The position numbers and the translations under genes are program-made. A DNA stretch of 64,000 nucleotides, taken from positions 52,688,962 through 52,752,961 of the forward strand of contig OX031062.1 of NCBI GenBank assembly GCA_943736015.1. Reading direction: 5' to 3'. This document shows positions 3,401-63,538 of the stretch, piece by piece. Under the pieces are notes generated by a model. It was given only the letters and a program-made list of their open reading frames with translations, was not told the DNA's origin and did no database searches. Numbering within the stretch: position 1 is the stretch's first letter; each line of letters begins with the position of its first letter. The DNA comes from Tridacna crocea. Its lineage: Eukaryota > Mollusca > Bivalvia > Cardiida > Cardiidae.

Positions 3401-6400
3401 AAAGTAGGATTTGTGTGATAATGGGTTAACTCCAATTTTTTTAAAAAAGTGTTTACTTTTTTCCACAGTGCTTTTATGAACCTTCCCTAGGGGAAAAAGC
3501 TTTCAGATAAAATTAGAGGAAAATGAGAAAATGCTGATAACCTATCATGGACAAGTCTTTTTAGAGCAGCCTATGTATGCTTTCGTTTAGGACAAAGTCA
3601 AAATTTTTGTTGTCTGATAAAGTGCTAAGAAGAGGTTCTATGTAGGTCACAGGTACAATCCTGACCCACTGCAGTCAGTTTTTAGCTCTACTGGCTTTCA
3701 GCCAGCAGAGCTTATGTCATGGCGTGGTTTCCGTCGTCCATTTGTCTGTATGTCCTTCTGTCCGTCCGTTAGTCTTTTTCTTGTTTATGCGATAAAGTCT
3801 GCATTTCTTGCCCGACTTTTGTGAAACTTGCACAGTTTGTGTATCTCATCAATAGCTTTAACCCTATTGATTTTGAGAAAAATCCAACAAACAGTATGGG
3901 AAAAGTAGCCATTTCAAGTTGGAAATTTCAAATTCTTGTTTACGCGATAAAGTCTGCATTTGTTGCCCAATTTTCATGAAACTTGCACAGTTTGTTTATC
4001 TCATCAATAGCTTCAACTCTATTGATTTTGAAAAAAATTCAACTAACAGTATGGGAAAAGTAGCCATTTCAAGTTGAACATTTCAAATTCTTGTTTACGC
4101 GATAAAGTCTGCATTTGTTGCCTGATTTTCGTGAAACTTGCACAGTTTGTTTATCTCAATAATAGCTTTAACCCTATTGATTTTGAAAAAAATCCAACGA
4201 ACAGTATGGGAAAAGTAGCCATTTTAAGTTGAAAATTTCAAATTCTTGTTTACGCAATAAAGTCTGCATTTGTTGCCTGATTTTCGTGAAACTTGCACAG
4301 TTTGTTTATCTCATCAATAGCTTCAATCCTATTAATTTTGAAAATAATCCAACAAACAGTATGGAAAAAGTAGCCATTTCAAGTTGAAAATTTCAAATTC
4401 TTGTTTACGCGATAAAGTCTGCTGCCAGATTTTCATGAAAATCACACAGTTTGTTTATCTTATCAGTGGCTTCAACCCTTTCAATTTTGAGAAAAATCCA
4501 TCAAACAGTATGAAAAAAGGAGCCATTTCAAGTTGTAAATTTCAAATTCTTGTTTTCGAGATAAAACGTGCATTTGTAATTAGATTTTTGTGAAACTTGC
4601 ACAGTTTGTTTATCTCACCAATAGCTTCAACCCTATCTATTTTGAAATAAATTCAACAAACGGTATGGGAAAAGAAACCATTTCAAGTTGAAAATTACCA
4701 ATTCTTGTTTTCGTGACAAAGTATGCATTTCTTGTCAGATTTTCAAGAAAAAGCAAAATTGAATTCTCTGCCAGTAGAGCATATTCAGGCCCTTCAGGGC
4801 CTTCTAGTTTCCTTAAGCATTCATAAGCGAGACTTTTCAAAGCTGCTTTCTAGTACCCTTTAATCCTTTACAACACAATCACAATTTTTAATGACCTTTA
4901 GAAAAGAGGCATTTTCAAAACATTGTGGGAAAAGGAGAAAATGCTGGTAACCAGCATTTTCTCCTTTTCCCACATTGCTTTCTACTGTATGAAAGAGAAA
5001 TTCCATCATTTGAGGTGTCTGCAGATGCTTTCATTTTGGAAAGGACTACTTTTTTTTTCTCATTTGGTAAAGAGATAAAGCAAAATATGACATAGAAAAG
5101 TGACATATTCCTAAAAGTATGTTGAAAAAAGCTTAAAATCCCATTTGATTATTGTAGGTTTAAGGATGTTTTTGGACCTAAAACACGGCCATCAGAGGAG
5201 GATTTACAAGATTTTTATGCTATTACGAGACATAAGGATGGATATATTGTCAATAGCAGGTATACTTACTTAACAATTACAGTTCATTCCCTCCTGCAAC
5301 AAACTTACAATTGACACCTTTGAAATACCCTTGCAAAAAATATGGAAACGCATGATAAATTATCATCAAATCATCTAATATATAAGATCCTGATGCATCA
5401 AAGTTTGCAACCATTTTATTTTTTCTTAGTATTCATGTGATAGTTTATAGAAATCAAGGCTGATGAGGTCATAACTTAAGTTCATTTTCTCATCATCTGC
5501 AAAATTGAAGAAAAAGAGGTTTAACTCATTTCCAAATGACCACATTTTAGGTCTGTCCAAATTGAAAGCATTTGCAGATAACAAAATAAAAGTGACTAAA
5601 AATTTGAAATTTCTCTGGTGAAGGGTAGAAAACATTTTGGGAAATGGAGAAAATGCTGGTTACCAGGGTCATCAAAAGTAGGGATTGTGTGGTAATGTGT
5701 TAAATAGACAAATTGGCATTTAGGAAAAGCTCATATACAAAACAGGTAGTTTTATTAGCATAAAGACCCTCTTCCAATATAAACTTCTAATAATTTCAAA
5801 ACAGAGCCAGATTTTGGAAATAATTATTCCTCCACAGGATTAATGGATGCTGTTAATGGATGTCATGTTACTGTGTAAGAGGTTGAGGTTACAGGACAGT
5901 TGATTTTCAAAATGCTGGTTTATTTTGAATTTCCGCAAATACACGTAGGGGTACATAACAAAATGGCTCCCTTGTGCCAGCTTTGTCATGCTGGCTGAAT
6001 GAATTTTGTGTATATTTGATACAAATTGGACGTCTTGTATACTTAACCATTTACCTCATCTACCCGACTTAAACAACTGTTTCCCTCAATGTTTTCAACA
6101 GGCCTCTTTCTCGGAGTCCTTACAGTTGGGGATTGTGTGATAAAGGTTTAACTCTTTACCAAACAACAAAATTTTAGACTTGTCCAAATTGAAAGCAAAT
6201 TGCAGACATCAAAATAAATAATTAGAAATTTGTATCAAGGAGTAGAGAAAACATTGTGGAAAAAAGAGAAAATGCTGGTTACCAGCATTTTCTCCTTTTC
6301 CCACAATATTTTCAAAAAGCTTCTTTCTCATGGTCATCAAAAGTTGGCATTGTGTGGTAAAAGGTTAAATTTGTGATTACCTGTTCATTTTAGATTAATT

Positions 6401-12541: not shown

Positions 12542-12639
12542 TCCAAATCTTGACCCTCAACTAGTTTGTAGAATAGCCATATGGTATCTTCCCATACCTC
12601 ACCCTCTGTTCATCTGTGTAGACAAGGTTACAATTAAAA

Positions 12640-14324
12640 ATGAAGGGATTTAATAAGTACACAGCCATTTTCTTTGTAAATATCTATCTGTGCTTCTGTT
12701 CCGGAGATCCGCAACCACTGGTGGCTTCGGTGCTTCCTACGTTAGGACCAATAGCGACGGCAATCCCTGGATGTCAGCATAATGGTAAAACGTACGCACC
12801 ATTCCAGTCTTTCAACCCAAGTCCTTGTGAACACTGCATGTGCTCTGGAAATGGGCAGGTTGCCTGTGCCATAGCTGACTGTTTCTTCACTCCATGTGTG
12901 GATGCTGTACATGATCCTACGAGATGTTGCCCTACTTGTCCAAATGGTAACCAAGAAATTTACTGTTCACCTCTTTATTGAATAATGCCCTGATTTTAAA
13001 AAATCTGCCAAAAAAGACTCATGGTAACAATGTAGGAAAACAATGGTCCCCTTGCAAAAACAGATTCCATATTTCAGATAATTATGTTTAGGACAAATTT
13101 GATCATTTAAGCTATATATTTATTTTGTTGTCTGCAAATATTTTCCCTATCTGTTCAAAGACAAATTTGATCATTTGAGCTATATACTTATTTTGTTGTC
13201 TGTCTGCAAATGTTTTTCTTATCTTTTCAAAGACAAATTTGATCATGTGAGCTATGTTTATTTTGTGGTCAATGTATAAATCAGTATGAACAAGTCTCGT
13301 TTACTTTCTATTTTAACCCATTACCACACAATCCCTAGTTTTGACACCCCTGAGAAAGAAGTCTTTAGAAAACATTGTGGAAAAAGGAGAAAATGCTGGT
13401 AACCAGCATTTTCTTTTCCCGCAATGTTTTCTACCCCTCACAAAACAAATTTCAAATTTTCAGTCACTTTTATTTTGTCATCTGCAAATGCTTTCAATTT
13501 GGACACATCTAAACTTTTGTCAACTGGTAATGAGTTAATCCTTTTCCACTTGTGTTCACATAAACCTGATCATGCTGATACAAAGATGAGACTGTTGTGC
13601 AAAAGGCCAAAAATATGGGTAATAAGCATTCTCTACTTATCAAAAAAATGTTTTCTATCCTTTCAAAGACAAATCCTCTACAAAAAGTACCAAAATTTGG
13701 ATCTGTTTAGAATTTTGTCATCCTGTAATTTTGCAGATATAATTTACAATTACAAAGACATCCAATTTGTTGTAAGCAGATGCAAATCTCAAATTATTCT
13801 CTCTTAATCCTTAACTCTTTATGACACAATCTCTGGTTCAGACAAAGCTGAGGAAGAAGCCTTTAGGGAACATTGTGGGAAAAGGAGAAAATGCTAGTAG
13901 CTTCCCACAATGTTTTCTAAAGTTTTACACAGATCCAAACTGAAAGCAATTGCAGACAGATGATTCAGTGAAATGCAAATGATGAAAAATATTTGTGAAT
14001 AGAAATAAAAACAAATTGAGCAGTGTTAAAAACATTTCCTCCTTTCTCTGCAATGTTTTCTAATGTCTTCTGTCTCCGGGTCCTCATAATTTGGGATTGT
14101 TTTGTAAAGGGCTAAAGTGTTACATTAAAATTACTTCAGGAGAAAATTGCAAGGCCCCAGATGGTAAGATTATAAAGAAAGGTGAGACCTACCATCCTGA
14201 TGCCAGAACAACATGTTCATGTCCAACACAGTTTGGATTCGGAGCACCACTTGCACAGTGTTCTATGGTTGGAATACCACTTCTATTTACAAAACCTAAC
14301 CCCACTTACACCATCATACCTTGA
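12640..14324 (+). CDS. Secreted VWC-domain protein, VWC2/VWC2L-like, two coding exons
   Basis: Exons 12640-12946 and 14140-14324 join at matching phase (aat g / ga gaa) to give 163 aa. Residues 1-21 are a hydrophobic signal peptide. A full VWC domain of ten cysteines runs from C45 to C100 (C63-x2-C66-x-C68, then C96-C97-x2-C100). A partial second module follows (C106, C128, C130, C143). The join CCPTCPNGENC parallels the CCPICKNGPNC of VWC2L, a secreted BMP-pathway regulator; function here is inferred. The start is the first ATG after a pyrimidine-rich TGTGTAG acceptor, so a 5' non-coding exon is likely. An AATAAA lies 27 nt after the stop. The intron holds two MITEs and a MITE-derived tandem repeat. 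Confidence 0.85.
13086..13275. repeat. Three tandem units of about 66 bp derived from the MITE arm
   Basis: GACAAATTTGATCATTT, GAGCTATAT, TTATTTTGT and CTGCAAAT recur three times in order. The unit corresponds to the segment between hairpin and terminus of a minus-oriented TTAA MITE (CTTTCAAAGACAAA...GAGCCACATTTATTTTGTC...CTGCAAATGC). Confidence 0.75.
13313..13538 (-). mobile_element. TTAA MITE, complete copy
   Basis: TTAA at both ends; hairpin with GGTAACC tip and a 4-base loss in the right stem. It lies in the VWC gene intron. A faint remnant follows at 13605-13730. Confidence 0.92.
13811..14115. mobile_element. Two joined TTAA MITE pieces
   Basis: A minus-type left end with a shortened hairpin (13811-13922, GCTAGTAGCTTCCCAC) runs straight into a plus-type copy (13923-14115) ending GTAAAGGGCTAA. 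It ends 25 bp before the second VWC exon. Confidence 0.75.
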
Positions 14325-18100: not shown

Positions 18101-21100
18101 CTTGCATGTTCAAGAATTGAGCAGTATTCTTGTTGATTCAAGGAACATGTATTTCTTGGAAGGTATACAGTAATTTTTTTTTAAAAAAGCAGTACAGAAG
18201 TACTTAATTTTGTGATCATTGAAATTGGATCAATATTCTATTATGATTAAATTACCTTACTGTTCGGGAGGGCTTTTGAGATAAAACCTGCAATAAAGAG
18301 CAAAAATTGAAAAAAATTCCATCATCAAGAAGTAATCTTGACAGTTTACCCATTTCAAAGAACTTCAGGGAGTAATGCATTTTTTCTCTTTTGGTTTTTC
18401 TTTTTACAGAAACATAAATTGTAACAATGCATCATCATGTTCATGTTCTAAAAATGTACTGAAAAATACTGATAGTGTTTCCTGAAAGGTTTTACCATCT
18501 AGAAGCTTCCATATTTTGCTTTAACTCTTTACCACACAATTCCGACTTTTCACGACCCTGAGAAAGAAGCCTTTTGAAAACATTGTAGGAAAAGGAGAAA
18601 ATGCTGGTAACAAGCATTTTCTCCTTTTCCCACAATGTTTTCTACTCTTCCCAAAACAAATTTCAATTTTTGAGCCACATTTATTTTGTCATCTGCAAAT
18701 CATTTCAATTTGGACAAGTCTACAATTTTGTTGTTTTGTAAAGAGTCAAAACAAGGAATCTAGCACAAAGACATATGAAGTTTCAAATATCAAATGGTCC
18801 ACCCTTTACCATACAACAGTTTTATACTGTTATGAGGTAAAAGGCTTCAGAAAAAATTGTGAAAAAAGGTGAAAATGCTGGTATCCAGCATTTTTTTTTT
18901 CCTTTTTCCGCCATGTTTTCTACTCTATTAGAGGTATTTAGGTTATTTTTGCCATTTTTGAATTTGTTGCCCAGAGATGCTAAGCAGAGTAAAGGATATG
19001 ACATTTGGTAAAAGGTTGATTCTTTACTAAAAAAAACATTTCAGACTTGTCTAAATAAAGAGCATTTGCAAATGACAATTTCCATAGGCTTCAGATTTTG
19101 TAGTTTGTCTTTTATAGGGTATAAAAGAGTGTGGAAAAGAAGGGTATCTTGCTACCAGTATTTCTGTATGACAATAAATAAGGCTGAAATTATCTGTACC
19201 TTTAGATATTTTTGAAAAGGGCCTTTGAAAGTGAGAGAAAGATTTACTCTTCTCTTTCATGAAAAAGGAATATAAACAATAATGGGTTTTGTTTCACTCT
19301 ATTTGCATCTGTAATAAATCACTTGATACTATTACATGTATTTAGCTTGTGTCCTTCACTGTTCACCTGTCCTCATTTTACTTCCTGCAGAAAAAGTACC
19401 CATAGCATACAAGACTGAATATATCAGACTTTGCTCTGAATAAAATTATGATTATGTCTGCATTGAGTGCACTTATTGGTGGACAATTATTTTGAGAGCA
19501 TTTGCACTATGTGCGGATCAAGATAATACTGGACATAATGTGCAATCTGTTTTTAAATCTACAAATAGTCTTTATGCTTAACTCTTTACCATATGAGAAA
19601 TTAATAGACAGGTCCAAATTGAAAGACTGGCAGACGACAAAATAAAGGTGACTGAAAAATCAGAATTTGGTTTGGGAAGGGTAGAAAACACTGTGGGAAA
19701 AGGAAAAAATGCTGGTTACCAGCATTTCCTCCTTTACCTACAGCGTTTTCAAAAGGCTCCTTTCTCAAGGTCATTAAAAGTCGGGATTGTGTGGTAAAGA
19801 GTTAACTCTTTTCCAATTGACAAATTTTTGGACTTAACCAAATCCATTTAGCATCTGCAGACAACAAATTTAATCTTGCTAACATGTTGATTTCTGACTT
19901 TGATAGGGTAGAAAATATTGTTGGAAAAGGAGAAAATGCTGGAAACCAGCATTTTCTCCTTTTCCCACAAAATTTTCTATAGGCTTCATTCTCGGTGTTG
20001 TTAAAAGTCGGGATTGTGTGGTAAAGAGTTTAAGCTTTCAAATTGCTAATTCATTTAATTGTTTGAAGTATTAATTGTCATAGGCTTGGTGCCTTCTACA
20101 TTTCCGTCTGTTCAAAAACTTTTGACATCTTTTATTATCTCAATCTTTATTGGGGATATTTACTTCACACTTGGACAGGGTGATTACTACCAAAAGAAAA
20201 AGCTATGCATGCAACCAGAGCAGATTGGTAGTGATCAGAATATTTTTTATACAGTTACGCCCCTTTTTTTTTATGCAGAATTTTCAATAGTAGCCAGAGC
20301 CTAGCTTTGGCATCAGCATGCAATGTGCTTGTTTTTGTCCAGTGTATGCACTATTGTTTAGCACGACGGGGAATCACGTGACACAACAACAACAACAATG
20401 ACCGTTATTTGAAAAAATTCTCCAACTTCAGGTGAGAAAATCTTCAATAATTCCATTAATACATGACGGATTGGAATTTGGTTTGAAGCAGAGAAGGCGG
20501 AAGGATTCCAGAGATTTGCTTGATGTGTTAGAGTTTTTAAAAAAAACCCTGATAAAAAAGTTATTGACAAGCAAACAAATTTTTTACCCTGGATAATTTG
20601 TTTGCTTGTCAACTTTTTTATCAGGTGTTGTTTAAAAAATCTAACACATCAAGCAAATCCCCGGAGTCCTTCCGCCTTCTCTGCCTCAAACCAAATTCCA
20701 ATCGGTCACGTATTAACGGAATTATTGAAGATTTTCTTACCTGAAGTTGGGGAATTTTTTCAAATAACGGTCATTGTTGTTGTTGTTGTGTCATGTGATT
20801 CCCCGCCGTTTTTAGGTAATCCTTTAGCACACAAGAGTTTTAAAGACCCTGCCAAATAAGACAATTCAAAATATTGTTGGGAAAAGAAACACATGCTGGT
20901 ATCCCACAATGTTTTTTACCTTTCTAGGGACAAATTTTAGTTTTTGGGCCATATGTAATTTGATGTTGGCAACTGCTTCCAATTTGGACCATTTTAAAAG
21001 CTTTTTGTATGGTAAAGAGTTTTCCTTGAAAAGAGTCCAACAGTTTTATTTTTATCCTCATCCTGAGAAAGTAGTTTTATGAAAACTTTCTGTTTACCCG

Positions 21101-27100: not shown

Positions 27101-30100
27101 AGACAAATTTCATAAATCCAGATACTTTGAATTTGTTGTCTGCAAATGCTTTCAATATGGACCGGTCTAACCTTTTGTCATTTGGTAAATAGTTAAATAG
27201 TTATTTCTGTATTTGATAGGCTAGAAAACCATCATTTTCTTCTTTTCCTACAATGTTTTCAAATAGGCTACTTCCTCAGGGTAGTTAAAACTCGGGATTG
27301 TGTGGAAAAGGATCAAAAGAACACTCAGAAAGAAAGTTATAAATTTTATTACCTAAGGTCCCAGCCCCTTGATTTATACACATAAAATGTAGTATTATTT
27401 TTCTGTAGATGGTGTTGATCAAGCTCATTGTTTTCTCCTTTGCTCATAATAATTTCTACCCTTTTCGGGTTCCAGTCCATTATTTATACCTCATTTCCTT
27501 TGTTCATCTACCAGTGCTTTCATTTTGTCTTCAATCTCTTTACCACACAACCATTTCTTAGACTTATCCAAATCAAAAGAATTTGCAGATGATAAATGCC
27601 AATAAACCTGCTACTGAAAATGGAGAAAACATAGGAAAAGGAGGAAATGCTGGTAACCAGGCTGCTTTCTCAGGGTCGTTAAAATTGTGATTGTTCGGTA
27701 AAGAGTTAAATCGCTATTATGGTAAAGAGGGAAACAGTTTCATTATAAATGGAGAAGCTTTTGGGACAAACAGTGAAGATTCAAGATGGGACTATACTTA
27801 AAAATACAGGTGCTTGTTGAAGAAGCCAAAGATCTCAAAGCAGAAATCAAGAGATTGAAGGATGACAATGCTAAACTAATCAAGAAAACCAAATCAGCAT
27901 TAGGGGACAGGGATGTGTTGATGGTATGTATAATTCTATTTGTGATGTAATGATTGCTCCATCAATGATGATTTTGTATGATCCAAACTCAGTGTATGAT
28001 TATTTTCCAAGCTGTAATCACTGAATGAAGGAATACATTGCTAAACATATCAAGAAAACCAAATTAGCATTAGGTGATATGGATGTGTTGTTAGTATGAA
28101 TTTCTTCCCCTCCTTAAAGCTGAAATCAGTAGATTAACCCATTACCGCACATTCCCTACTTTTGACATGCCTGAGAGAAAAGCCGTTTGAAAACATTGTG
28201 GGAAAACGAGAAAATGCTGGTAACCAGCATTTTCTCCTTTTCACACAATGTTTTCTACCCTTTACAAAACAAATTTCAAATTTCAAGTCACTTTTATTTT
28301 GTCGTCTGCAAATGCTTTCAATTTGGACCAGTCTAAAATATTGTCGTCTGGTAACAGGTTAAAGAAAGAAGATGCTAAACTAATCAGGAAAATGAAATCA
28401 GCATGGTATAACAACGAAGTACAGTTAGTATGTTTGAATCCCCCCACCCCCCTTTTCCTTTGTAATGTAGCTATGGTTCCTTTCACGAAATTTTGGCTGA
28501 CAAAACATTTTACAGATACCAAATCTCAGAGAGTATAGGCAGGTATTCATTAGGTCTGTAGTCTTTAGACATAATAAGTAAATTTTTTGCTTGGAAAATA
28601 ATGAAGGAGCACTTCACATGGCTTGCATGACAAGTTAAATTTTCTAGCTTTTTTTTTGTGTTTATGTTTTTGAAGGCATTTCTATTTACATGTAACTCTT
28701 TACCATACAATTTCTCCTTTTCCCACAATGCATTTGTCCTTTTCCCACAATATTTTCTACCCAATCAAAGTCAGAAATCATCAAAGTATCAAAATTTAAT
28801 TTGTTATCTGCAGATGCTTTGAATCTGGTCCAGTCCAAAAATTTGTCGTAGGAGATTGCAAATTCTTGGACTTATCCCATTTGAAGGCATTCCCAAGCAA
28901 CAAAGAATATGTCGCTCAATTTGCAGCTACTAGTATCTCTGTCAGGCCAAAACATAATGTAGAATAAGGAGTCAGTGCAAGTATTTTCTCCTTTTTTCTA
29001 ACAACATTTTGAAAACCATCATTTTTGGAGTTGTAAAGATGAGGGATCGTTTAACCCATTGCCACACAATCCCTACTTTTGACGCCCCCTGAGAAAGAAG
29101 CCTGTAGAAAACTTTGTGGGAAAAGGAGAAAATGTTGGTAACCAGCATTTTCTCCTTTTCCCACAATGTTTTCTACCCTTCACAAAACAAATTTCAAATT
29201 TTCAGTCACTTTTATTTCGTCGTCTGCAAATGCTGCAAATTTGGACCAGTCTAAAACATTGTGGGAGAAGGAGGAAATGCTGGTTACCAGGTTTCTACAT
29301 GGTTTCTTTCTCAGGGTCGTCAAAAGTAGGGATTGTGTGGTAATGGGTTAAGAGGACTTGACTCATATTCATCAGTATGTGACCCCTCATGCGAAAAGAG
29401 ACAATCTGCAAATACGTACATTAATCAGATCAAAACATATCACAATAGTGCATGTCAGTTTTAGTTGATAGTTCAAAAATGATTGTATGACAAAGTACAT
29501 TGTAGTTTGACCATTTCTTACACAAAAGATATCTTAAAAAGGAAATGTGTTGAGCCTGGTAAGCCTGCGCTATTCACGCAGTCTGCTCACGGTTGACGCT
29601 TTCTGCAGTTCCCAGATGGTCCCTTTTTGCGTGACAGGTCACATTATTTTGTTTTCTCTGTTTTCTCGTTTCAGCATCGCCTAGAGACAAGTGAAGCAAA
29701 CAGAAGAAATTTGTTAAAGAGAGTTGAAAAAGAAAAAGGCCAGGTAAGATTGTATGAGCAATTTTTTATGATCAATCTTGAGCTCTGACATATGTTTCTT
29801 TTCCTACAAATCTTTCTACTCTATCAAAGACAACTTCCACAATTTAAGTCATTACCAAATGACAAAATTCCAGACATGTCCAAATTGAAAGCATTTGCAG
29901 ATGACAAATTAAAAGTTACTGAAAATTTGAAAATTGTTTTGTGAAGGGTAGAAAACACTGTGGGAAAAGGAGAAAATGCTGGTTACCAGCATTTTCTCCT
30001 TTTCCCACAATGTTTTCAGAAGACCTTTTGACTGGGTCGTAAAAACCAGGGATTGTTTGGGAAAGGGTTAAGCCACATTTATTTTGCCATCTGCAAATGT

Positions 30101-32529
30101 TTTGACATTGGACAGGTCTTGTACAAATCTTATTGTGTTGCTCAGGGTTAAGATTTATCAAAAACTGTTGAATGACACACAATGGAAAAACGTTCAAAGA
30201 AAAGAGTAATAAAGTTTATGAATAGTTGAAAACATTTTGGAAAAGGGACAATAACTTGTAACAAAAAAATTCTCCATTTCCCAGAATATTTTCCAGAATT
30301 ATCAAAGTGGTAATTGATTCATAATTTTTTTCTTTTGATCCAGTACAAGCAACTGTCCAGAAGTTTAACTCGACAAGCGTCTGACTGGATTTTACTGAAG
30401 AAACAAATAGCACAATTTGATGAGGAATACCGTTGGAGTCAGGTACTGAAATTTTTTTGAATTCACAAACAAACATAGGGAAAATAAGATACTGGGATAA
30501 AACAGTATATTTGTTGAGACACAATCAAGAAAATATTCTTTTATTTAACTCTTTACCACACAATCTCGAGTTTTAAGTACCCTAAGGAAAAATCCATTTG
30601 AAAATATTACAAGAAAAGGAGAAAATGCTGGTAAGCAGCATTTTCTGCTTTTCTACGATGTTTATTTTGTCGTCTGCAAATGCTTTGAATTTGAACTAGT
30701 CTAAAAATTTGTTGTTTGGTAAAGAGTTAAACCTATTTCTTTTACATGGATTGTTTAATGCATATTAACCTTAGACCCTGCTAAATAAATATGAAACTTT
30801 AAAACCTGTAGTAAAAACCTCAAAAATGCTGTTTCAAACTTATTTTTTAGAGAATAGTATTTTCTTACTAGACTGTGTAGATCCAAGATCACACTACATT
30901 ATGTGCAGTCTGATCTTGATCTACACTGTTTGCTAAAGGTCAGTGAGTTGTGCCTAGCAGCTTAAATGTTGATTTAACCCTTTACCCCACAAGGTATTTC
31001 TGTGGTATCTCTAATTGACCCTAAATAACAGCAAGGATGAAGCCGTTTTTTATGTGTGTATGACACCTTTTGATAGTGTAGAAAACATAGTGGCAAAAGG
31101 TGAAATTGCTCGTCACGAGCAATTTCACCTTTTGCCACAATGTTTTCCCAAGGCTTCTACGAGCAATGCGTAGAAATGAGTATCTATGGAGTAAAAGGTT
31201 ATTGCTCTTGGTGGTTGCTTCCTGAAAAGTATAGCCAGTACTTGCCCTGTGATGTGGGTACTTCTAAAGGTTGACCACCCTTATTTGGGAAATCTCAGTT
31301 TCAAGAAATCATGTAATGGTGAGACTATGTTTGCTGACAAGTCTTAACTCATTCCCAAACAAGCCCTGAGTTTTGAGTCTGCAGTACAAGTCTTTAGAAA
31401 ACACTGTGGGAAAAAGAGAAATTGCTCGTAACGAGCAATTTCTCCTTTTCCCACAGTGTTTTCTAGCCTATCGGAAAACTTTCTGCCATTCTCATAAAGT
31501 TCAAAATTGTCATTTGCAAACACTAATTGAGTTTGAGAGAGTCTAAAATTTGTCATTCGGGAAAGGGTTAAGTATTGCTTTAATTCTAAATTTAAACAGC
31601 AGCTACCTTGTCAGGTCAGATGTTCTGTTGTATCCAATGTGATTGCTAGTCTTTGACCTTAAATAAGAATCGAGTTATCCTTTATTTGTGGAAAACAATA
31701 TTTAATTTTTACAAAATGACAAAATGTTAGTTGTCCAAAATGAACAAGTTAACCTTTTACCAAACGACAAAATTTTAGACTGGTCCAAGTTGAAAGCACC
31801 CGCAGATGGCAAAATAAATATAACTCAAAAATTGAAATTCGTTTCCAGAAGGGTAGAAAACATTGTGGGAAAAGGAGAAAATGCTGGTAACCAGCATTTT
31901 CTCCTTTTCCTACAATGTTTTCAAATAGCTTCTATCTTTGGATCGTAAAAACCAAGGATTTTTTTTAAATTTTCTAAAGGGTTAAATGGGAAAAACCATT
32001 GAAGGAAAAGGAAAATGCTGGACACCAGCATTTCTTCTATTCCCACAGTGTTGTCAAAAGCCACCTTCTGTGGGTTGATTAAAACACAGGATTGTGTGGT
32101 AAAGGTTTAATCCCTTACCACACAACCCGGACTTTTTATGACCCTGAGTTGGAAGCCTTTTGAAAACATTGTGGGAAAAGGAGAAAATGCTGGTAACCAG
32201 CATTTTCTCCTTTTCCCACAAAGTTTTCTACCTTTCCCAAAATAAATTTTGATTTTTGAGCCATATTGATTTTCAATTGGCTTTCAATTTGGACTATTCT
32301 GCCGTGTGGTAAAAAAGTTAAGTAATGGTAGATTACAGTATTATACAGTAATTTTGTTGAATTGCCTTTCTATCAGGTCATAGGTCTCTGGTTGAAAAAT
32401 GCCAGGACTAGAGGTAAAAATGTGTTTCCCCCTCTTGCTCCTGAACCATTACAAGACATGGTTCACAATGATACGGAGCTTAATGATGAATCCTATAGCC
32501 AAGATCAGGACCAAGTGTCCACAGAGTGA
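15143..32529 (+). CDS. Coiled-coil protein of 401 aa, ten exons, not identified
   Basis: Exons: 15143-15166, 17224-17289, 22313-22468, 24079-24149, 25241-25470, 26307-26530, 27810-27923, 29675-29743, 30344-30442, 32377-32529. Every join keeps phase, and the summed length (1206 nt) is exactly 402 codons with TGA. The first two exons (MSSKESFK and DEVDFVTPPSP...) are the least certain, and a further exon between 17290 and 22312 cannot be excluded. From residue about 31 the chain is mostly charged heptad-like helix (KLQEDLQTFEERN, KLKTEFTLHEKM, EIKRLKDDNAKL), broken near residues 230-255 by a Pro/Gly-rich stretch (LPTNPSSYTFLGG). The C-terminus is acidic and Gln-rich (SYSQDQDQVSTE). A cytoskeletal, centrosomal or ciliary role is possible but is only a guess. 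Introns carry more than 30 transposon insertions and two decayed exon copies. Confidence 0.82.
15358..15564 (+). mobile_element. TTAA MITE lacking most of the left hairpin arm
   Basis: TTAA at the left, GTTA at the right. The left stem is replaced by GGGGTAGATCACCAGC, so the hairpin is broken. It lies in intron 1 of the coiled-coil gene. Confidence 0.85.
15565..16999. other. Intron 1 interval without recognised gene
   Basis: A small hairpin at 15773-15808 (ATTACGCACA / TGTGCGTAAT) and a C-rich patch near 15970-16030 stand out. A TGCGCATG motif (NRF1-like) near 16215, followed by an open stretch ending in a GGTAAA donor near 16459, could be an alternative first exon, but this is weak. The rest shows nothing. 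Confidence 0.4.
17000..17165 (-). mobile_element. TTAA MITE, decayed copy
   Basis: ATCATTGTGGCAGAGC, CCTTTTCCAACAG and TTTTGTCATCTGCAAAT remain. It ends about 60 bp upstream of exon 2 of the coiled-coil gene. Confidence 0.5.
17334..17602. mobile_element. Hairpin MITE with long terminal inverted repeats and CAGGCTAATCC core
   Basis: The left end TGCAACAAGCAAAAAGGG matches the inverse of the right end (CCTTTTGGCGTGTTGCA), and the match continues through GACATTTGCGTAAAGTGTC. Two inner palindromes (GTGCAGTCTGCACAGGCTAA and GTGCGGACTGTACAGGC) lie within. It starts only about 45 bp after exon 2 of the coiled-coil gene. Confidence 0.75.
17628..18079. mobile_element. Foldback element with 5-bp target duplication (Transib-like ends)
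   Basis: Nearly the whole element is one inverted repeat: arms of about 210 bp around a short centre near 17850 (TTTTTTACCCTGG). Termini CACGGCGGGGAATCACG and the inverse match. It is flanked by ATAAA on both sides (17623-17627 and 18080-18084). A 5-bp duplication with a CACGGCG heptamer resembles Transib transposons; no transposase is present. The second copy at 20362 is closely similar. Confidence 0.88.
18521..18749 (-). mobile_element. TTAA MITE, complete copy
   Basis: TTAA at the left, TCAA at the right; hairpin with GGTAACAAGC tip. The interval 18080-18520 before it is plain intron. Confidence 0.92.
18798..19019 (-). mobile_element. TTAA MITE, diverged copy
   Basis: CACCCTTTACC and GGTAAAAGG termini, hairpin GAAAATGCTGGTATCCAGCA with a T-run in the right stem; TTAA degraded. 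Confidence 0.82.
19017..19175 (+). mobile_element. TTAA MITE, decayed copy
   Basis: CTTTACTAAAAAAAACATTTC, the GAGCATTTGCAAATGACAA arm and GCTACCAGTATTTC remain. 19176-19577 shows nothing further. Confidence 0.6.
19578..19805 (+). mobile_element. TTAA MITE, complete copy
   Basis: TTAA at both ends, hairpin tip GGTTACC with small stem changes. It is head-to-tail with the next copy through one shared TTAA. Confidence 0.93.
19802..20033 (+). mobile_element. TTAA MITE, complete copy
   Basis: TTAA at both ends (left shared). The hairpin tip is GGAAACC. It is clearly diverged from its left neighbour, so the pair arose from two insertions and not from a recent duplication. Confidence 0.93.
20362..20810. 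mobile_element. Foldback element with 5-bp target duplication, second copy
   Basis: Same family as 17628-18079, with arms of about 210 bp. Termini CACGACGGGGAATCACG and CCCCGCCGTT are flanked by TTTAG on both sides (20357-20361 and 20811-20815). The different duplication shows an independent insertion. Confidence 0.88.
20816..21021 (-). mobile_element. TTAA MITE, diverged copy abutting the foldback element
   Basis: TAATCCTTTAGCACAC and GGTAAAGAG termini; hairpin shortened to GCTGGTATCCCAC. It begins right after the target duplication of the foldback element. Confidence 0.8.
21040..21178. mobile_element. TTAA MITE, decayed copy
   Basis: CTCATCCTGAGAAAGTAG, TTTTTCCACAATGTTTTC and GGTTAAGAGTTAA remain. 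21179-21680 shows nothing else. Confidence 0.55.
21690..21835. mobile_element. Hairpin MITE with CTGATTGGCTAAACCA core, diverged copy
   Basis: GAAAGTAACACGGCTTCTG and its inverse CAGAACTTGTGCTACTTG flank a centre with repeated TTGATTGACTA motifs. Related copies lie at 22091 and 55978. Confidence 0.6.
22091..22225. mobile_element. Hairpin MITE with GGCTAAACCA-type core, diverged copy
   Basis: TTCTTAGTCTAATCCTAGA at the left and AGGAATTAGACCAAGAAT at the right are inverted. The core GGTGAACCATTTGATTTAGCC is inverted around its centre. Confidence 0.65.
22806..23181. mobile_element. TIR element with degenerate 9-bp target duplication (Mutator-like)
   Basis: Termini CATCTTCGCAAGCCAAG and the exact inverse CTTGGCTTGCGAAGATG. 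Flanks ATATAGCCA (22797-22805) and ATCTAGTCA (23182-23190) agree at 7 of 9 bases. The interior matches the element at 49401 in inverse orientation. No transposase. Confidence 0.75.
23397..23623 (+). mobile_element. TTAA MITE, complete copy
   Basis: TTAA at both ends; hairpin with one stem change (GGGACAAGG). Confidence 0.93.
23654..23882 (-). mobile_element. TTAA MITE, complete copy
   Basis: TTAA at both ends, perfect hairpin GGTAACC; among the best preserved copies. Confidence 0.94.
24681..24902 (-). mobile_element. TTAA MITE, complete copy
   Basis: TTAC at the left, TTAA at the right; imperfect hairpin (GTTGGTAACCAGC). The interval 24150-24680 is intron with no recognised feature. Confidence 0.88.
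25500..25565 (+). mobile_element. TTAA MITE, left-end fragment
   Basis: CCACACAACAAAATTTTAAAC and CAAATTGAAAACATTTGC remain. Confidence 0.65.
25597..25824 (-). mobile_element. TTAA MITE, complete copy
   Basis: TTAA at the left, TTGA at the right; hairpin tip diverged (GCTTGATACCAAC). Confidence 0.88.
25826..25900. mobile_element. TTAA MITE, hairpin fragment
   Basis: GTAAACATTGTAGGAAAAAG and AGCATTTTCTCTATTTCCC remain of the central hairpin. Confidence 0.6.
26055..26284 (+). mobile_element. TTAA MITE ending 23 bp before an exon
   Basis: The left end is diverged (CACCAATTACC), TTAA is at the right, hairpin perfect to ACAAATTTTT. Exon 6 of the coiled-coil gene starts at 26307, so its pyrimidine tract lies almost against the element. 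Confidence 0.9.
26563..26770 (+). mobile_element. TTAA MITE, right end truncated
   Basis: TTAA at the left; hairpin with GAAGAAAATGC/GCATTTTCTTC, paired changes on both arms. The right terminus is lost after CAGGGTGGCTAAAA. Confidence 0.88.
26897..26953 (+). mobile_element. TTAA MITE, left-end fragment
   Basis: TTAACTCTTTGCCAAAC and ATTGAAAATATTTGCAGAC remain. Confidence 0.7.
26969..27196 (-). mobile_element. TTAA MITE, complete copy
   Basis: TTAA at both ends; hairpin with small stem changes (GAAAACGC). Confidence 0.92.
27193..27314 (+). mobile_element. TTAA MITE, right-half fragment
   Basis: It shares TTAA with its left neighbour; contains GATAGGCTAGAAAACC and the right stem to GATTGTGTGGAAAAGG. 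Confidence 0.75.
27531..27709 (+). mobile_element. TTAA MITE lacking the right hairpin arm
   Basis: CTCTTTACC start and TTAA end. GGTAACCAGG is joined directly to CTGCTTTCTCAGGG, as in the copy at 5521. Confidence 0.85.
28022..28438 (+). pseudogene. Two decayed tandem copies of coiled-coil exon 7
   Basis: Copy one (about 28022-28106) keeps ATCAAGAAAACCAAAT and GGATGTGTTG of exon 7 (27810-27923). Copy two (28112-28136 plus 28363-28438) keeps AAAGCTGAAATCAG and GATGCTAAACTAATCAGG and is split by a TTAA MITE. Both have lost the GTATGT donor frame (TTAGTATG) and are not needed for the open reading frame, so they look like dead duplicates. A minor splice form cannot be excluded. Confidence 0.85.
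28134..28362 (-). mobile_element. TTAA MITE inserted inside a duplicated exon
   Basis: TTAA at both ends (28134-28137 and 28359-28362), full hairpin with GGTAACC. Taking out the element and one TTAA leaves a sequence that aligns without gaps to functional exon 7, which shows the target and its duplication directly. Confidence 0.96.
28694..28852 (-). mobile_element. TTAA MITE, rearranged copy
   Basis: AACTCTTTACCATACAATT joins straight to right-stem sequence, and CCTTTTCCCACAAT occurs twice. Confidence 0.7.
28855..29050 (+). mobile_element. TTAA MITE, decayed copy
   Basis: TTGGACTTATCCCATTTGAAG arm in diverged form, GCAAGTATTTTCTCC, and GGGATCG before the next TTAA. Confidence 0.6.
29051..29351. 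mobile_element. Chimeric TTAA MITE: whole minus copy joined to a plus right half
   Basis: TTAA at both ends. A minus copy with full hairpin runs to GGACCAGTCTAAAA, where a second hairpin half starts (CATTGTGGGAGAAGGAGG), ending with the plus right terminus GATTGTGTGGTAATGGG. Both outer ends are therefore of the same type. Confidence 0.85.
29800..30150 (-). mobile_element. Older TTAA MITE split by a younger one
   Basis: TCTTTCTACTCTATCAAAG (29812-29830) and GCCACATTTATTTTGCC (30072 on) are adjacent parts of a minus copy. They are separated by the complete copy at 29844-30071, which sits in a TTAA. Confidence 0.75.
29844..30071 (+). mobile_element. TTAA MITE, complete copy nested in another
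   Basis: TTAA at both ends, perfect hairpin; inserted into the older copy described at 29800-30150. Confidence 0.94.
30545..30730 (-). mobile_element. TTAA MITE, internally shortened copy
   Basis: TTAA at both ends. The right stem CTACGATG is joined to TTTATTTTGTCGTCTGC, so about 40 bp are missing. 30731-30973 is intron with one small inverted motif near 30900. Confidence 0.88.
30974..31202. mobile_element. TTAA MITE, subfamily B, second copy
   Basis: TTAA at the left, TTAT at the right. The hairpin GGCAAAAGGTGAAATTGC with tip TCGTCACGA is perfect. Inverse orientation to 1695-1921. Confidence 0.9.
31344..31571 (-). mobile_element. TTAA MITE, subfamily C, second copy
   Basis: TTAA at both ends; hairpin GAGAAATTGCTCGTAACGAG with main-family outer stem. 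Close to 10788-11013 (AAACAAGCCCTG, AACTTTCTGCCATT). Confidence 0.92.
31749..31985 (+). mobile_element. TTAA MITE, complete copy
   Basis: TTAA at both ends, perfect hairpin; a short T-run expansion near the right end. Confidence 0.93.
31986..32110 (+). mobile_element. TTAA MITE, right-half fragment
   Basis: Starts at the hairpin (AAACCATTGAAGGAAAAGG), tip GACACCAGC, ends GTAAAGG and a TTAA shared with the next copy. Confidence 0.78.
32107..32321 (-). mobile_element. TTAA MITE, complete copy
   Basis: TTAA at both ends, hairpin GGTAACC. It ends 56 bp before the last exon of the coiled-coil gene. Confidence 0.92.
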
Positions 32530-51022: not shown

Positions 51023-52542
51023 TACTCAAAGGATAAATAAACGCAGGGTAACATTAATTCCAACATTTTGAAAACGCGCACTCGAAATAAAGTGAAACTT
51101 TGTGAATTGAGTATTTAGGTCATATCACACCTGGCCATGTATCGACAATCAAGTTAAGGTACAGTGCGCGGGTCTGGTAACTGGATAAATGAAAAGACAA
51201 GAATCTCGTTATGGCATCGTGCAGCGTTGGCGTACTCACTCTTCGTTAGTCTTTATATAGACTAACTGCTTCCCTAAAATTAATTGAGAATTTCAATCGA
51301 TTTAAGAATGCCACGACTCTCAGAAGTTCAGAGGGGTCAGGCCATTGAGATGCTGATTCAAGGACAGCTGCAAAATCAGGTTGCTAGGCACTTTGGGGTA
51401 AATGTTTCCACTATAGAACGTCTTGTAAGACGTCTGCGGGAAACTGGGCGACTGACCGATCGATCTAGGTCCGGACGTCCACGTGTGACGTCACGACGTC
51501 AGGATCGTTATATTGTCGTCTCTCATATGCGTAATCGGCGCCTTACCGCCGTTGAGTGTGCCCTAAATATTCGAGGAAATCATGGGCGTCCCATTAATTC
51601 AAAGACTGTAAGAAATCGATTACGAGAACTTGGTATAAGAGCACGTCGCCCCCACGTACGTCCACACCTTACCCCTGCTCGACGTCAGCGTCGTATGGCC
51701 TGGGTCGCAGCACATGCTCCACGACGGTTTCCACTGAGGCAGTGGAGACAAGTTTTCTTCACAGACGAGTCTCGATTCAGCCTTTATCGATCTGACGGCC
51801 GGCAACGTGTATATCGACGTAATGGCGAACGTTTCGCCGACGCTTGCGTTGTAGAGAGAGATAGCTTTGGGGGCGGATCAGTAATGGTGTGGGGAGGAAT
51901 CTCACATGGGTTGAAATCACAATTGGTTGTCATTGATGGCAATTTAACGGCAGCTAGGTATAGAGATGAGATCCTCCGACCCCATGTTATCCCTTTCTTA
52001 CAGCAGCATAATCTGACCTTGCAGCAGGATAATGCTAGGCCCCACGTAGCTAGGATTTGCCAAGTCTTTCTGGCAAACAACAACGTTCAACCACTCGATT
52101 GGCCGCCATATAGCCCAGATTTGTCCCCGATTGAGCATCTATGGGACCAGTTGGATAGACAGGTTCGACAGCGCCAGCCACCCCCTGCTACTCGAGTCCA
52201 GTTGACCAGAGCCCTAGTAGAAGAGTGGAACAACATCCCCATAAGACGGATTAACGCTCTCATGAACTCTATGACCAGGAGAATTAGGGCCGTGACCAGA
52301 GTAAACGGCGGACACACCAGATATTGAGGAGCAAGTTCAATTTCAATTTCGAAATCCCATGGGTCCCTTCAATTTAGCCCTTAATATCCCTAAACCAATA
52401 TTCAAATACAAAATACAGACTTTGGAACTTTTTTAGCTTGAAGTTATCTCTAAGTAATACCAAATTTAATTTCAAATGAAGCCCGATATCATACTTTATT
52501 TCTGGTTTAAAGTACACCCTGCGTTTCTTTATCCTTTGAGTA
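51023..52542 (+). mobile_element. Tc1-like DNA transposon, apparently whole
   Basis: Terminal inverted repeats TACTCAAAGGATAAATAAAC and, inverted at the right end, the same with one mismatch; about 27 bp run to GCAGGGT. The element sits in TA (TATATA flanks). A second motif GAAATAAAGT recurs inside both ends. The 1520-bp element holds one long transposase frame. Confidence 0.9.
51308..52327 (+). CDS. Tc1-like DD34E transposase, 339 aa, open
   Basis: It cuts out and re-inserts its own element at TA. The N-terminal part has two helix-turn-helix regions (about residues 5-52 and 65-115) separated by a SGRPR motif. The catalytic triad is visible: D153 in FFTDESRF, D241 in QQDNARPH and E276 in SPIEHLWD, with 34 residues between the last two; the GGGSVMVWGG motif of the family is present. 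I chose the ATG giving MPRLSEVQ; another in-frame ATG 24 nt upstream is possible (347 aa). Length is normal for the family. The frame is open and GC-richer than its surroundings, which suggests recent arrival. No frameshift or stop is seen, so it may be active. Confidence 0.93.
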   Translation: MPRLSEVQRGQAIEMLIQGQLQNQVARHFGVNVSTIERLVRRLRETGRLTDRSRSGRPRVTSRRQDRYIVVSHMRNRRLTAVECALNIRGNHGRPINSKTVRNRLRELGIRARRPHVRPHLTPARRQRRMAWVAAHAPRRFPLRQWRQVFFTDESRFSLYRSDGRQRVYRRNGERFADACVVERDSFGGGSVMVWGGISHGLKSQLVVIDGNLTAARYRDEILRPHVIPFLQQHNLTLQQDNARPHVARICQVFLANNNVQPLDWPPYSPDLSPIEHLWDQLDRQVRQRQPPPATRVQLTRALVEEWNNIPIRRINALMNSMTRRIRAVTRVNGGHTRY

Positions 52543-52984: not shown

Positions 52985-55612
52985 ATGATGTTTGCAGTTA
53001 GAACGTGTGCTGCACTGATGTTAGTGGCGGGTAAGTCATAAGAAATACCGAATATAACAAGGACTCTACTTGCACCTGTACTTAAAAATCTCCATCTTTT
53101 TTGCCTCACTATCTACATACAAGACTTAATGTTCGAATTAAAGTGCACTGATAATGGATTTTAACACTCAAATCGTTATCAAACAGTTCCGCGTTTTTGT
53201 GCGTATGTGAAAAACACTGCAAATGCTTTCAATTTGGACAAGTCTAAAACTTTGTCGTCTGGTAAAGAGCTAAATTGGGACGAGACTACAATTTCGTCAT
53301 TTGGGAAAGAGCTGTCTGAGAAAAAGTGAGCGTTTGCTCAATTTTTCAACTAAAGGAGAAAATTATATATCACCATTTTACCTCTTTTCTCATAGTGTTT
53401 TCAAAAACCTTCCACTGGGTTGTTTGGTTAGGGGTTGAGTATACTTTTATATAGTTCCATGACTAGATCTATTTCTTTCTGAATAGATTGACTCGATCAA
53501 GGAACAAAAGTATTCTTTGCCTAAGTTTTGAGGTTAAAGAAAGTAGTCTAGATCGACCAGCAAGCTCAAACCAATTTAGCTCTTGATGATGATGATGATG
53601 ATGATTAAGATGATGATAAAATAATATGATTATTTGAAAACCATGAAAAGCATGTATTATGGGTACAAATGATACTCACTTCCGGTTATTTTCTTAGCCA
53701 GTCTAAAAGAAATTTGAAGTAGCCTCCTGCATAATAGATACAGAGCATAAACTTTTTTTTTACAAACAGTGCAGTGTGTGCACATGGAGGACCATTCATT
53801 GGATCCAGATTATTATCGGTGTCCATTCGGCTTATTTGACGCGGGGAGACCGGTGATGGCTGAAAATGGCGGCGTCATGTACTGTGATGTAGATGGTGTC
53901 AGGTGTCCTAACTTTTACTTCTGTAGTGGCGGATACCAAGATGGCCGCGCTGTTTGCTGTCACATTCTTGGTAGATTCTTTTTCTTGATCTTTTTTAAAC
54001 ATTTTTTATCACTCTTCCTCTAGATCTAGTCTATTTATAGACTTGATATTTAGTATTGACCAGGGTTGTTTGAATTATGGGGGTTCCCGGAATTATTCGC
54101 ATGGTCGATCGTTGCCGAGTGGTTTCCATCTTGGATTTCAATCATACATATATATATTTTTTGTCACAAACTATAAAATTTTATCAGTTACAGCGGAGAA
54201 GGTTGGGGTTTGGGACTGCATACGCTGATCCAGATATCTTTCTCGAGGGGGGGGGGGGGGGGGGAGTCCCACCGAAAACGCACACACATCTTATTATATG
54301 ATACTTTGGTTTCCGGATTTCAGTGGATGCAAGCCGTTTACTAAAAAGTCAACGTTTCCAGATCTAACCATAGGGAGGTCTCCACATTAAGAACCTTTTT
54401 TTGTTTTATTTTTAAATTTATGACAGTATTCTACATAAATGCTGTGCAGTATCAAACCAGTACTATTTCACGAATCCGATAACCACACTTTTGCCAAAAT
54501 TCCAGGGGGGGGGGTCCAGACCCCCGGTCCCCCCTCTGGATCCGCCCATGGGACTGTATGCCTTCACGAAAGAAGATGAGCGATCCTCCGCGAAAGGGGG
54601 CTTAATGCATCTGCGGAAAGTTTCGACCTGTATCAGCCTGCGCAGTCCGCGCAGGCTGACATAGTTCGAAACCTTTTGCCAGGTGTAAATTTCCTACATG
54701 TCAGAGGTCCAGTCTACCTTAAGATCTATTCCATTATTGGACTAAATGGACTTTATGGACCATAATTATGTAACGACTTGCTTGGCTTTGAGCCCTCCCC
54801 CTTTTATCCGTACCACAAGGAGAAAACGCATTCCTCTTGCAACTACCTATGGGTGTTTGATAGAGTCTTTCATGTCTTTAGCTCACCAGAGCACGAAGTG
54901 CTCAACGTGAACTTTTTTTATCGTGCTGTGCTCATCGTTCGTCGTGTTTCGTTCCTCGTGCGTCGTCAACTTTAACATATGTGCGCTCTAAAGGTCACAT
55001 TTTGAGTCCGATGCTTATGAAACTTGGCCAGAGTATTTGTCTTGATGATATCTTGGACGAGTTCGAAAATGGGTCAGGTCAAAAGCTAGTTCACCAGGTC
55101 AAATCTCAGAAAAACATTGTGTGCAAACTAGAGGCCATATTTTCAGTCTAACACTCTTGAAGGTTATTCAAAGAAAGTCTCAGACTATTCCAAAATAGGT
55201 CATGTCGGGTCAATAACTAGGTAAATAAGTCAAATTTTAGAAAAGCCTTGTTTCGGCTTAACAGACTACATTTTCAGTCATATCTTAGAAAAACTTTATG
55301 TACACTCTAGAAGCCAAAATATAAGTTCACTACTAATGAAACTTGGTCGGAAAGTTTGTCTCGATGATATCTTGGATGAGTGTAAAAAAGCATGAGTACG
55401 AGCTAGAAGCCAAATTTGCCGTCCAATACTTGTGATAGCTTGTTATAATGTTTATCATCATATCTCCAAAGTGATTGAAAATAAGTCATGTTTGGTCAAA
55501 AAGCTCAGGTGAACGAATTAGGGCCATTGTGGCCCTCTTGGTTTTTTAAACAGTAAACGGTCGTATCTTTCATTCATTCGACCTTTATTCTTTTGTTTTT
55601 TCAGGTCCATAG
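52985..55612 (+). CDS. Secreted lustrin-type cysteine-rich protein, 84 aa, three exons
   Basis: Exons 52985-53030, 53770-53970 and 55605-55612 join in phase (gcg g/tg; ctt g/gt) to 84 aa. Residues 1-16 form a signal peptide (MMFAVRTCAALMLVAV). The mature part has C33, C54, C61, C67, C78 and C79 in the spacing of the lustrin cysteine domain (C-x20-C-x6-C-x5-C-x10-CC); C18 is extra. Such domains occur in molluscan shell-matrix proteins and in secreted protease-inhibitor-like proteins, so a shell or mucus role is possible but not shown. The start is the first of two adjacent ATGs after a strong CTTACAG acceptor, so a 5' non-coding exon is likely. The last exon adds only two codons. AATAAA follows 52 nt after the stop. 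Confidence 0.82.
53161..53274 (-). mobile_element. TTAA MITE without its hairpin
   Basis: TTAA and CTAA ends. AAACAGTTCCGCG is joined through GAAAAACACTG directly to GCAAATGCTTTCAATTTGG, so the whole hairpin is gone. Further right-end scraps lie at 53276-53440. Confidence 0.8.
53586..53617. repeat. GAT trinucleotide microsatellite
   Basis: About nine GAT units with one interruption. The rest of 53440-53769 shows nothing but the acceptor tract of the next exon. Confidence 0.85.
54230..54560. repeat. G-rich repeat with an 18-base G run
   Basis: An uninterrupted G run at 54247-54264, then a second G block and GGTCCAGACCCCCGGTCC near 54515-54530, ending TGGATCCGCCCATG. The ends resemble a dispersed transposon terminus, but I cannot assign it. 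Confidence 0.55.
54590..54680. repeat. Short hairpin repeat CAGCCTGCGCAGTCCGCGCAGG
   Basis: AAAGGGGGCTTAATGCATC and a perfect GCCTGCGCAG/CTGCGCGGAC-type hairpin. Related to 49850-50090, 52560-52800 and to the core near 62810. Confidence 0.6.
54877..55540 (+). mobile_element. Helitron-like element with 145-bp repeats, short copy
   Basis: TTTAGCTCACCAGAGCACGA head with GAGCACGAAGTGCTC, about four diverged units, then CTCAGGTGAACG and GGGCCATTGTGGCCCTCTTG. It lies in the last intron of the lustrin-type gene, ending 64 bp before its final exon. Confidence 0.82.
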
Positions 55613-63080: not shown

Positions 63081-63313
63081 TTAAATCTTCACCAAACGAC
63101 AAACTTTCAGACTTGTCCAAATTGAAAGCATTTGCAGACGACATAATTATTAAACATGACTCAAAAACTAAAATTTCTTATGGGAAGGGTAGAAAACATT
63201 GCAGGAAAAGGAGAAAATGCTGATTACCAGCATTTTCTTCTTTTCCTACAATGTTTTCAAAGAGCCTCTTTCTCAGGGTTGTTGAAAGTCGGGATTGTCT
63301 GGTAAAGGGTTAA
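63081..63313 (+). mobile_element. TTAA MITE, complete copy
   Basis: TTAA at both ends; hairpin GCTGATTACCAGC. It shares its right TTAA with the next copy. Confidence 0.93.
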
Positions 63314-63538
63314 CCCATTACCACACAGTCCCTACTTTTGACGCCCCTGAGAAAGAAGCCTTTTGAAAACACTATGGGAAAAGGAGAAAATGCTGGTAAC
63401 CAGCATTTTCTCCTTTTCCCACAGTGTTTTCTACCCTTCCCAGAACAAATTTCTATTTTTTAGTCACCTTTATTTTGTTGTCTGCAAATGCTTTCAGTTT
63501 GGACCAGTCTAAAAATTTTTCGTATGGTAAAGAGTTTA
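63310..63538 (-). mobile_element. TTAA MITE, complete copy
   Basis: TTAA at the left (shared), TTTA at the right; perfect hairpin with GGTAACC. Tail-to-tail with its neighbour. Confidence 0.93.

What the first reader, a model, noticed from the sequence alone, without database searches (positions are those of the whole stretch)
28022..28438. A MITE caught inside a duplicated exon: direct proof of TTAA target duplication
The third copy of coiled-coil exon 7 is split at 28134-28362. Removing the element plus one TTAA gives a sequence that aligns without gaps to functional exon 7 (AGATTGAAGGATGACAATGC against AGATTAAAGAAAGAAGATGC). The paralogous exon thus acts as an empty site within the same window, fixing the element's boundaries and its TTAA duplication. 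TTAA with CCC-type termini is the mark of piggyBac-like transposons (Kolobok also uses TTAA, but its ends differ).
Basis: partly seen in the sequence, partly recalled or inferred. Interest (0 to 1): 0.72.

Follow-up and report, generated by a model that had tools for sequence, protein, structure and literature searches.

The report
piggyBac MITE inside duplicated exon copy
A small, very common piece of jumping DNA of the piggyBac type has landed inside an old spare copy of a probable protein-coding exon; this is ordinary transposon biology, although the family it belongs to is unusually large in this genome.

Summary
Confirmed, with one correction. A 229-bp element (28134-28362, both TTAA included) interrupts a diverged copy of the putative exon 27810-27923. 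Joining the flanks with one TTAA gives a gapless 103-bp alignment to the exon and its splice donor (score 45; best of 500 shuffles 14). The paralogous empty site reads TTGA, not TTAA, so the exon fixes the size and place of the insertion but not the TTAA itself. Family data fix that: TTAA is at 89/110 left and 83/110 right ends, and before 38,198 of 43,389 genome-wide left ends, about the rate of an internal 4-mer (38,198/44,148).

The piggyBac assignment is supported: the genome holds elements encoding piggyBac transposases whose ends match the MITE (30 of 34 bases at one end). Kolobok is disfavoured by its reported 5'-RR..YY-3' ends.

It is a new family of a known kind; CMITE and mPok are close precedents. 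Unusual: 481,095 genome sites match its 31-bp palindromic core with up to 3 mismatches, and the palindrome is better conserved than the rest of the element.

The parts
28134..28362 (+). MITE, 229 bp including both TTAA
   Evidence: family alignment
28134..28137 (.). left TTAA target-site duplication
   Evidence: family statistics
28359..28362 (.). right TTAA target-site duplication
28138..28151 (+). left terminal inverted repeat (CCCATTACCGCACA)
28345..28358 (-). right terminal inverted repeat (reverse complement CCTGTTACCAGACG)
28190..28256 (.). central palindromic region (model positions 57-123), folds into a long hairpin; best conserved part of the family body
27810..27923 (+). putative coiled-coil exon ('exon 7'), 38 codons, the paralogous empty site
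28006..28101 (+). copy 2 of the exon: aligns with one gap, stop in the matching frame
28113..28133 (+). copy 3 of the exon, 5' piece before the element
28363..28427 (+). copy 3 of the exon, 3' piece after the element, followed by GTATGT at 28428-28433
29051..29351 (+). nearby long-TIR copy of the same MITE family (far end read by eye)

Best explanation
The feature is a non-autonomous piggyBac-superfamily element (a MITE). A transposase made by a related full-length piggyBac element recognised its ends and pasted it into a TTAA in a diverged duplicate of a coiled-coil exon, which left a TTAA on each side. Shown: the boundaries, the gapless paralogous empty site, TTAA at most other copies examined, and full-length piggyBac elements in the same genome with matching ends. 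Inferred: that such a transposase moved it; that the TTAA arose in the exon copy by a substitution (TTGA to TTAA, TTG and TTA both Leu) before the insertion; and that the copy is no longer used as an exon.
For: Gapless empty site over 103 bp. TTAA at both ends in 70 of 110 nonredundant near-full copies, 89 left and 83 right, with no marked preference just outside it. Only 3 of 110 copies carry the same non-TTAA 4-mer on both sides. Genome-wide, 38,198 of 43,389 places that match the 30-bp left-end pattern (three degenerate positions, no mismatch) have TTAA before it (88.0%), against 38,198 of 44,148 (86.5%) for an internal 4-mer. PF13843 gives 118 matches in the genome, some of them pieces of one copy. 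L042 (508-aa open frame) has both ends TTAACTCTTTCCCACACA, and its left end matches the MITE consensus at 30 of 34 bases. L039, L040 and L041 (492-aa open frame at each; L039 to L040 99.956% over 6,870 bp) have a left end TTAACTCATTACCAC.. in L039 and L040. Their right end TTAACCCATTACCG.. is seen for the L040 and L041 copies in L055 and L056 and in the related L049. Of 2,017 TTAA sites outside MITE hits in L039-L054, 6 reach 11 of 14 matches to a MITE end, and 4 of those 6 are ends of these elements. The catalytic regions align to piggyBat transposase (E 5.7e-37 and 1.2e-35) and to 6x67, listed as 'Transposase' and recalled to be piggyBac (E 4e-30 and 4.3e-31).
Against: The exon paralog has TTGA at the target. 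The left arm of the paralogous match is only 21 bp. The element's own ends are CCCA and CCTG, not the textbook CC[C/T]T. The MITE's right subterminal region does not resemble either piggyBac lineage beyond the terminal repeat (14-19 of 34 bases), so it is not a simple deletion product of the copies seen. L049, the fourth copy of the L039 group, has two stops in the transposase match (L037). TTAA is altered at the right end of L039 and the left end of L041. No mobilisation was tested.
Confidence: 0.93

Rival explanations
1. The element went directly into a non-canonical TTGA target, and the TTAA carried on its ends replaced the target bases on both sides.
For: The exon reads TTGA and copy 2 ATGA. 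Other nested copies sit at sites whose host consensus is not TTAA: 9 of 9 nested in MITEs, and TAAA in 6 of 6 gapless rows for L033.
Against: Reported non-TTAA piggyBac targets keep the middle TA (PMC3849761, passages); TTGA does not. Copy 3 differs from the exon at 26 of 90 positions, so one prior substitution is likely. The spread of one- and two-step sites fits drift.
Confidence: 0.04
2. It belongs to another TTAA-targeting superfamily such as Kolobok.
For: TTAA duplications alone do not separate the superfamilies (PMC9587614, passages).
Against: Kolobok ends are reported as 5'-RR..YY-3', whereas this family begins CYC. Matching ends flank piggyBac transposases.
Confidence: 0.02
3. The insertion did not kill the exon copy: the right end of the element (..GGTAACAG|G) acts as a new splice acceptor and the 3' piece is still spliced.
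For: An AG sits at the right end; the 3' piece keeps an open frame and the GTATGT donor.
Against: The new acceptor would shift the frame by one base relative to the predicted exon (read by eye); there is no RNA evidence.
Confidence: 0.05
4. Copy 3 is not a duplicated exon and the alignment is chance.
For: The first 24 bases of the exon have no counterpart in copy 3, and the left arm is only 21 bp.
Against: Score 45 against a maximum of 14 in 500 shuffles; 103 gapless positions including the donor.
Confidence: 0.01

Closest known systems
CMITE families of Acropora corals (PMC2872659; abstract, Results and Discussion read)
   Same: Short piggyBac-type MITEs with TTAA duplications, CCC-type ends, an empty allele shown at TTAA, one family with the ends of a piggyBac-like element, and an internal region better conserved than the terminal repeats.
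   Different: CMITEs are about 100 bp and about 1,600 copies in A. millepora; this family is about 229-300 bp with 481,095 core matches. I could not compare the internal sequences, which the paper gives in a figure.
mPok MITEs and Pokey of Daphnia (PMC3849761, passages)
   Same: piggyBac MITEs; TTAA at 88% of insertions; 23% of mPok copies sit in the TTAA of another copy (here 7 of 49 near-full window copies share a TTAA).
   Different: Pokey also targets 28S rDNA, and 90-110 mPok copies are reported.
L042 and the L039/L040/L041/L049 piggyBac elements of the same genome
   Same: Terminal repeats CYC(A/T)TT(A/C)CC with TTAA; left 34 bp of L042 30 of 34 identical to the MITE consensus.
   Different: About 6.4 and 7.2 kb, encode a transposase; no resemblance to the MITE's right subterminal region beyond the terminal repeat.
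Kolobok MITEs such as T2 of Xenopus (PMC6004289, search listing only; that T2 is TTAA-flanked is recalled)
   Same: TTAA-flanked, long-lived MITEs.
   Different: Different termini (5'-RR..YY-3', PMC9587614).

Membership tests
piggyBac superfamily (non-autonomous) | TTAA target-site duplication | tested here: met
piggyBac superfamily (non-autonomous) | CC[C/T]T terminal motif (as stated in PMC2872659) | tested here: inconclusive
   Family consensus CCCT; this copy CCCA and CCTG. AmiPB4 in the same paper has CCCATT, and the piggyBac elements here have CTCA, CCCA and CTCT ends.
piggyBac superfamily (non-autonomous) | 12-19 bp terminal inverted repeats | tested here: met
   Consensus ends agree at 12 of 14 bases; in this copy 9 of 14 (counted by eye)
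piggyBac superfamily (non-autonomous) | ends shared with an element that encodes a piggyBac transposase | tested here: met
   MITE-like ends identified for 5 of 14 long piggyBac loci (L039, L040, L041, L042, L049; for L049 only the right end)
piggyBac superfamily (non-autonomous) | mobilised by that transposase, seamless excision | not testable with these tools
   needs a biochemical or cell assay
Kolobok | 5'-RR..YY-3' termini | tested here: not met
   this copy runs CCC..AGG between the TTAA, the consensus CCC..GGG; definition
Tc1/mariner | TA target duplication without a fixed outer T and A (definition recalled) | tested here: not met
   the whole TTAA is as fixed as an internal 4-mer
MITE | short, non-coding, high copy, terminal inverted repeats | tested here: met
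   229 bp; one forward frame is open only for the roughly 73 codons between the TAA of the two TTAA words and the other two have stops (minus strand not read); 38,198 places match the 34-bp end pattern

The most novel reading that the evidence does not exclude
This is a very large single MITE expansion in an animal: about half a million or more copies of one piggyBac-derived family, very roughly a fifth of a 1.05-Gb genome. Its central 59-bp palindrome, for which no role in piggyBac transposition is known to me, has stayed far better conserved than the rest of the element as the family diversified, so the hairpin itself may be required for amplification.
Probability: 0.35. Interest if true: 0.55.

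Novelty: new member of a known kind. Interest (0 to 1): 0.32.

Why it matters
The site itself is a neat paralogous empty site but teaches nothing new about piggyBac. What could matter is the family: a piggyBac MITE at about one recognisable core per 2.2 kb of a gigabase genome, with candidate full-length partners in the same genome, three of them nearly identical. It offers a natural case for asking how a MITE out-multiplies its source and why an internal palindrome is conserved, a question left open for CMITEs in 2010 (PMC2872659, Discussion read).

Tried and rejected
Searching the genome for another unfilled copy of the exon region: 27790-28133 and 28363-28700 match only their own place. Identifying the gene: concatenated candidate exons gave no PDB match better than E 1.5 and no Pfam match above its cut-off; exon 7 alone gave one hit below its cut-off (CASP_C). 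Naming the species by assembly size in the literature: three unrelated papers. Rfam: all matches lie below the families' gathering scores and are mostly microRNA precursors, as any long hairpin may give; mir-9457 is in no paper held. A first subfamily alignment was wrong because four loci were in the other orientation; redone. The seven relatives are the best hits, so their low divergence is partly a choice. In one search one of the eight young copies (L006, length not 229) was dropped, leaving seven. That set has 5 of 37 changes in the palindrome against 10.8 expected, too few to separate selection from a low local mutation rate. Rare variants are commoner in the palindrome than elsewhere (0.016 against 0.008); this fits constraint on source copies followed by neutral decay but is not proof. 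The covariation test does not allow for relatedness of the copies. Outputs were cut; one search is the filtered version that I used. It lists 15 insertions with passing rows, of which 3 lie in repeats other than MITEs (L031, L044, L033); I read the other 12 as MITE-in-MITE, tandem or self matches. A Kolobok transposase was not searched for.

Full report
What was checked. The window lies at G000:C7:52688962-52752961 of a 1.05-Gb genome in 31 contigs. The element occupies 28134-28362 including a TTAA at each end. Joining 28080-28133 to 28359-28480 and aligning to 27790-27960 gives 103 gapless positions that run from exon position 25 through the donor into the intron; the score is 45, the best of 500 shuffles 14, and 34 with the element in place. 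A stricter scoring keeps 67 gapless positions across the junction. The left arm is 21 bp with 17 matches (by eye). The joined flanks stay open in one frame for 30 codons, with 26 base differences from the exon in 90, no gap, and the donor at the same place. dN and dS are 0.34 and 0.50 over the 30 codons, too few to prove past selection.

The weak point. The exon has TTGA and copy 2 has ATGA where copy 3 has TTAA. The paralog therefore fixes the length and place of the insertion, but the TTAA comes from the element's two flanks. Both flanks occur only once in the genome at the sensitivity of the DNA search, so no better empty site for this insertion was found.

Family evidence for TTAA. A profile from 16 window copies finds 184 hits over 19,511 bases (30.5%) of the window. 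In 110 nonredundant near-full copies from the window and the fetched loci, TTAA is at 89 left ends, 83 right ends and both ends of 70. Of the other 40, only 3 have the same non-TTAA word on both sides, as expected of decay rather than of other targets. Genome-wide, 43,389 places match the 30-bp pattern inside the left end and 38,198 of them have TTAA before it. An internal 4-mer under the same scheme gives 38,198 of 44,148; this control is lowered somewhat by subfamily differences visible in its listing.

Other empty sites. In L031 and L044, MITEs sit in other repeats whose gapless paralogous rows read TTAA in 8 of 8 and 5 of 5, each one insertion event; in L033 they read TAAA in 6 of 6. Of 72 unique insertions with TTAA on both sides, 9 lie inside another MITE copy. 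The host consensus there is one base from TTAA in 5 and two bases in 4, and it has no internal TTAA. A drift model expects 67-74% one-step and 24-28% two-step sites at 20-25% divergence. Reported non-TTAA targets of piggyBac elements keep the central TA (PMC3849761, passages), so direct insertion into TTGA is unlikely.

Assignment. PF13843 has 118 matches in the genome. Fourteen piggyBac-centred stretches of about 10 kb were fetched; I identified MITE-like ends for 5 of them: L042, and the group L039, L040, L041, L049. L042 has TTAACTCTTTCCCACACA at both ends, about 6.4 kb apart, around a 508-aa open frame. Its left 34 bases match the MITE consensus at 30 positions, and this copy at 26. The L039 group is about 7.2 kb. 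L039 is 99.956% identical to L040 over 6,870 bp and to L041 over 6,872 bp, and L040 to L041 99.913% over 6,866 bp. The left end is TTAACTCATTACCACTCA in L039 and L040. The right end TTAACCCATTACCGTTCA is seen in L049 and, for the L040 and L041 copies, in L055 and L056 (fetched, printed). In L039 the right TTAA is altered, and in L041 the left one is. L049 has two stops in its transposase match (L037). Catalytic regions of L042 and L040 align to solved piggyBat and, by recalled entry code, piggyBac transposases; the three catalytic aspartates (identity recalled) fall in aligned positions in the piggyBat alignments. Other piggyBac lineages in the genome have different inner ends, for example CCCTTTATATAC. 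Kolobok termini are 5'-RR..YY-3' (PMC9587614, passages), which this family does not have.

Mechanism. For piggyBac, excision through TTAA hairpins, TTAA overhangs and strand transfer into TTAA are described in PMC7351741 (passages). I infer the same for this MITE. Age: this copy differs at 12 of 229 positions from the majority of seven close relatives, which themselves differ at 1 to 7 positions. The relatives were the best hits, so this says only that it is older than those.

Scale and the palindrome. Places matching the 34-bp left end with up to 3 mismatches number 196,556; places matching the 31-bp palindromic core with up to 3 mismatches number 481,095, with 0 in the reversed-pattern control. 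The window has 49 cores against a genome mean of 29.4 per 64 kb (by hand). Scaling the window coverage (30.5%) gives about 18% of the genome; scaling L039-L054 (about 11.5% by hand from the rows, 30 cores in 148,716 bases) gives about 26%. Both are extrapolations from non-random samples. In 116 copies the palindromic region has 92.5% majority identity against 79.5-79.6% in the other internal parts and 81-85% in the terminal repeats (rank test against the other internal parts p 1e-16 over positions, which are not independent). In 49 window copies double changes in the arms are complementary in 20 of 26 cells, and 90.1% of cells pair against 87.7% in shuffles, maximum 89.3% of 300; the shuffles ignore relatedness. 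The element folds as RNA with a long hairpin (z -6.2). CMITEs show the same pattern of a conserved interior and more variable ends (PMC2872659); one search for further precedents listed that paper and two unrelated ones. I made no survey of MITE family sizes.

Verdict. Only the size of the family and the conserved palindrome go beyond routine.

Noticed in passing
window 1-64000: One MITE family covers 30.5% of the window (184 profile hits); genome-wide 481,095 palindrome-core matches with up to 3 mismatches.
   Followed up: partly
window 28190-28256: Central palindrome of the MITE is better conserved across copies than the terminal repeats or the rest of the interior, and its arms covary.
   Followed up: partly
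L039:2074-9272 approximately, L040, L041: Three nearly identical (99.91-99.96%) piggyBac elements of about 7.2 kb on different contigs, each with a 492-aa open transposase frame. Recent movement is likely.
   Followed up: partly
window 63082-63536, 19578-20030, 6080-6368, 31986-32319, 1695-2015: 7 of 49 near-full window copies share a terminal TTAA with a neighbouring copy, as reported for mPok.
   Followed up: partly
L017:246-467: The TTAA that ends a MITE copy (464-467) is also the left TTAA of a piggyBac element with CCCTTTATATAC ends, so a MITE end seems to have served as target, or the reverse.
   Followed up: no
window 28113-28427: Copy 3 with the flanks joined keeps an open frame and donor despite 29% divergence, so it may once have been a used alternative exon.
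   Followed up: partly
window 51284-52324: Uninterrupted 347-aa Tc1-like transposase frame (DDE_3, HTH_Tnp_Tc3_2).
   Followed up: no
window 12622-12978, 14064-14321, 53751-54020: Exon-like frames with VWC, VWC2L-type and Lustrin cysteine-rich domains (the 14064 match is below its cut-off); this hints at a mollusc or relative, inference only.
   Followed up: no
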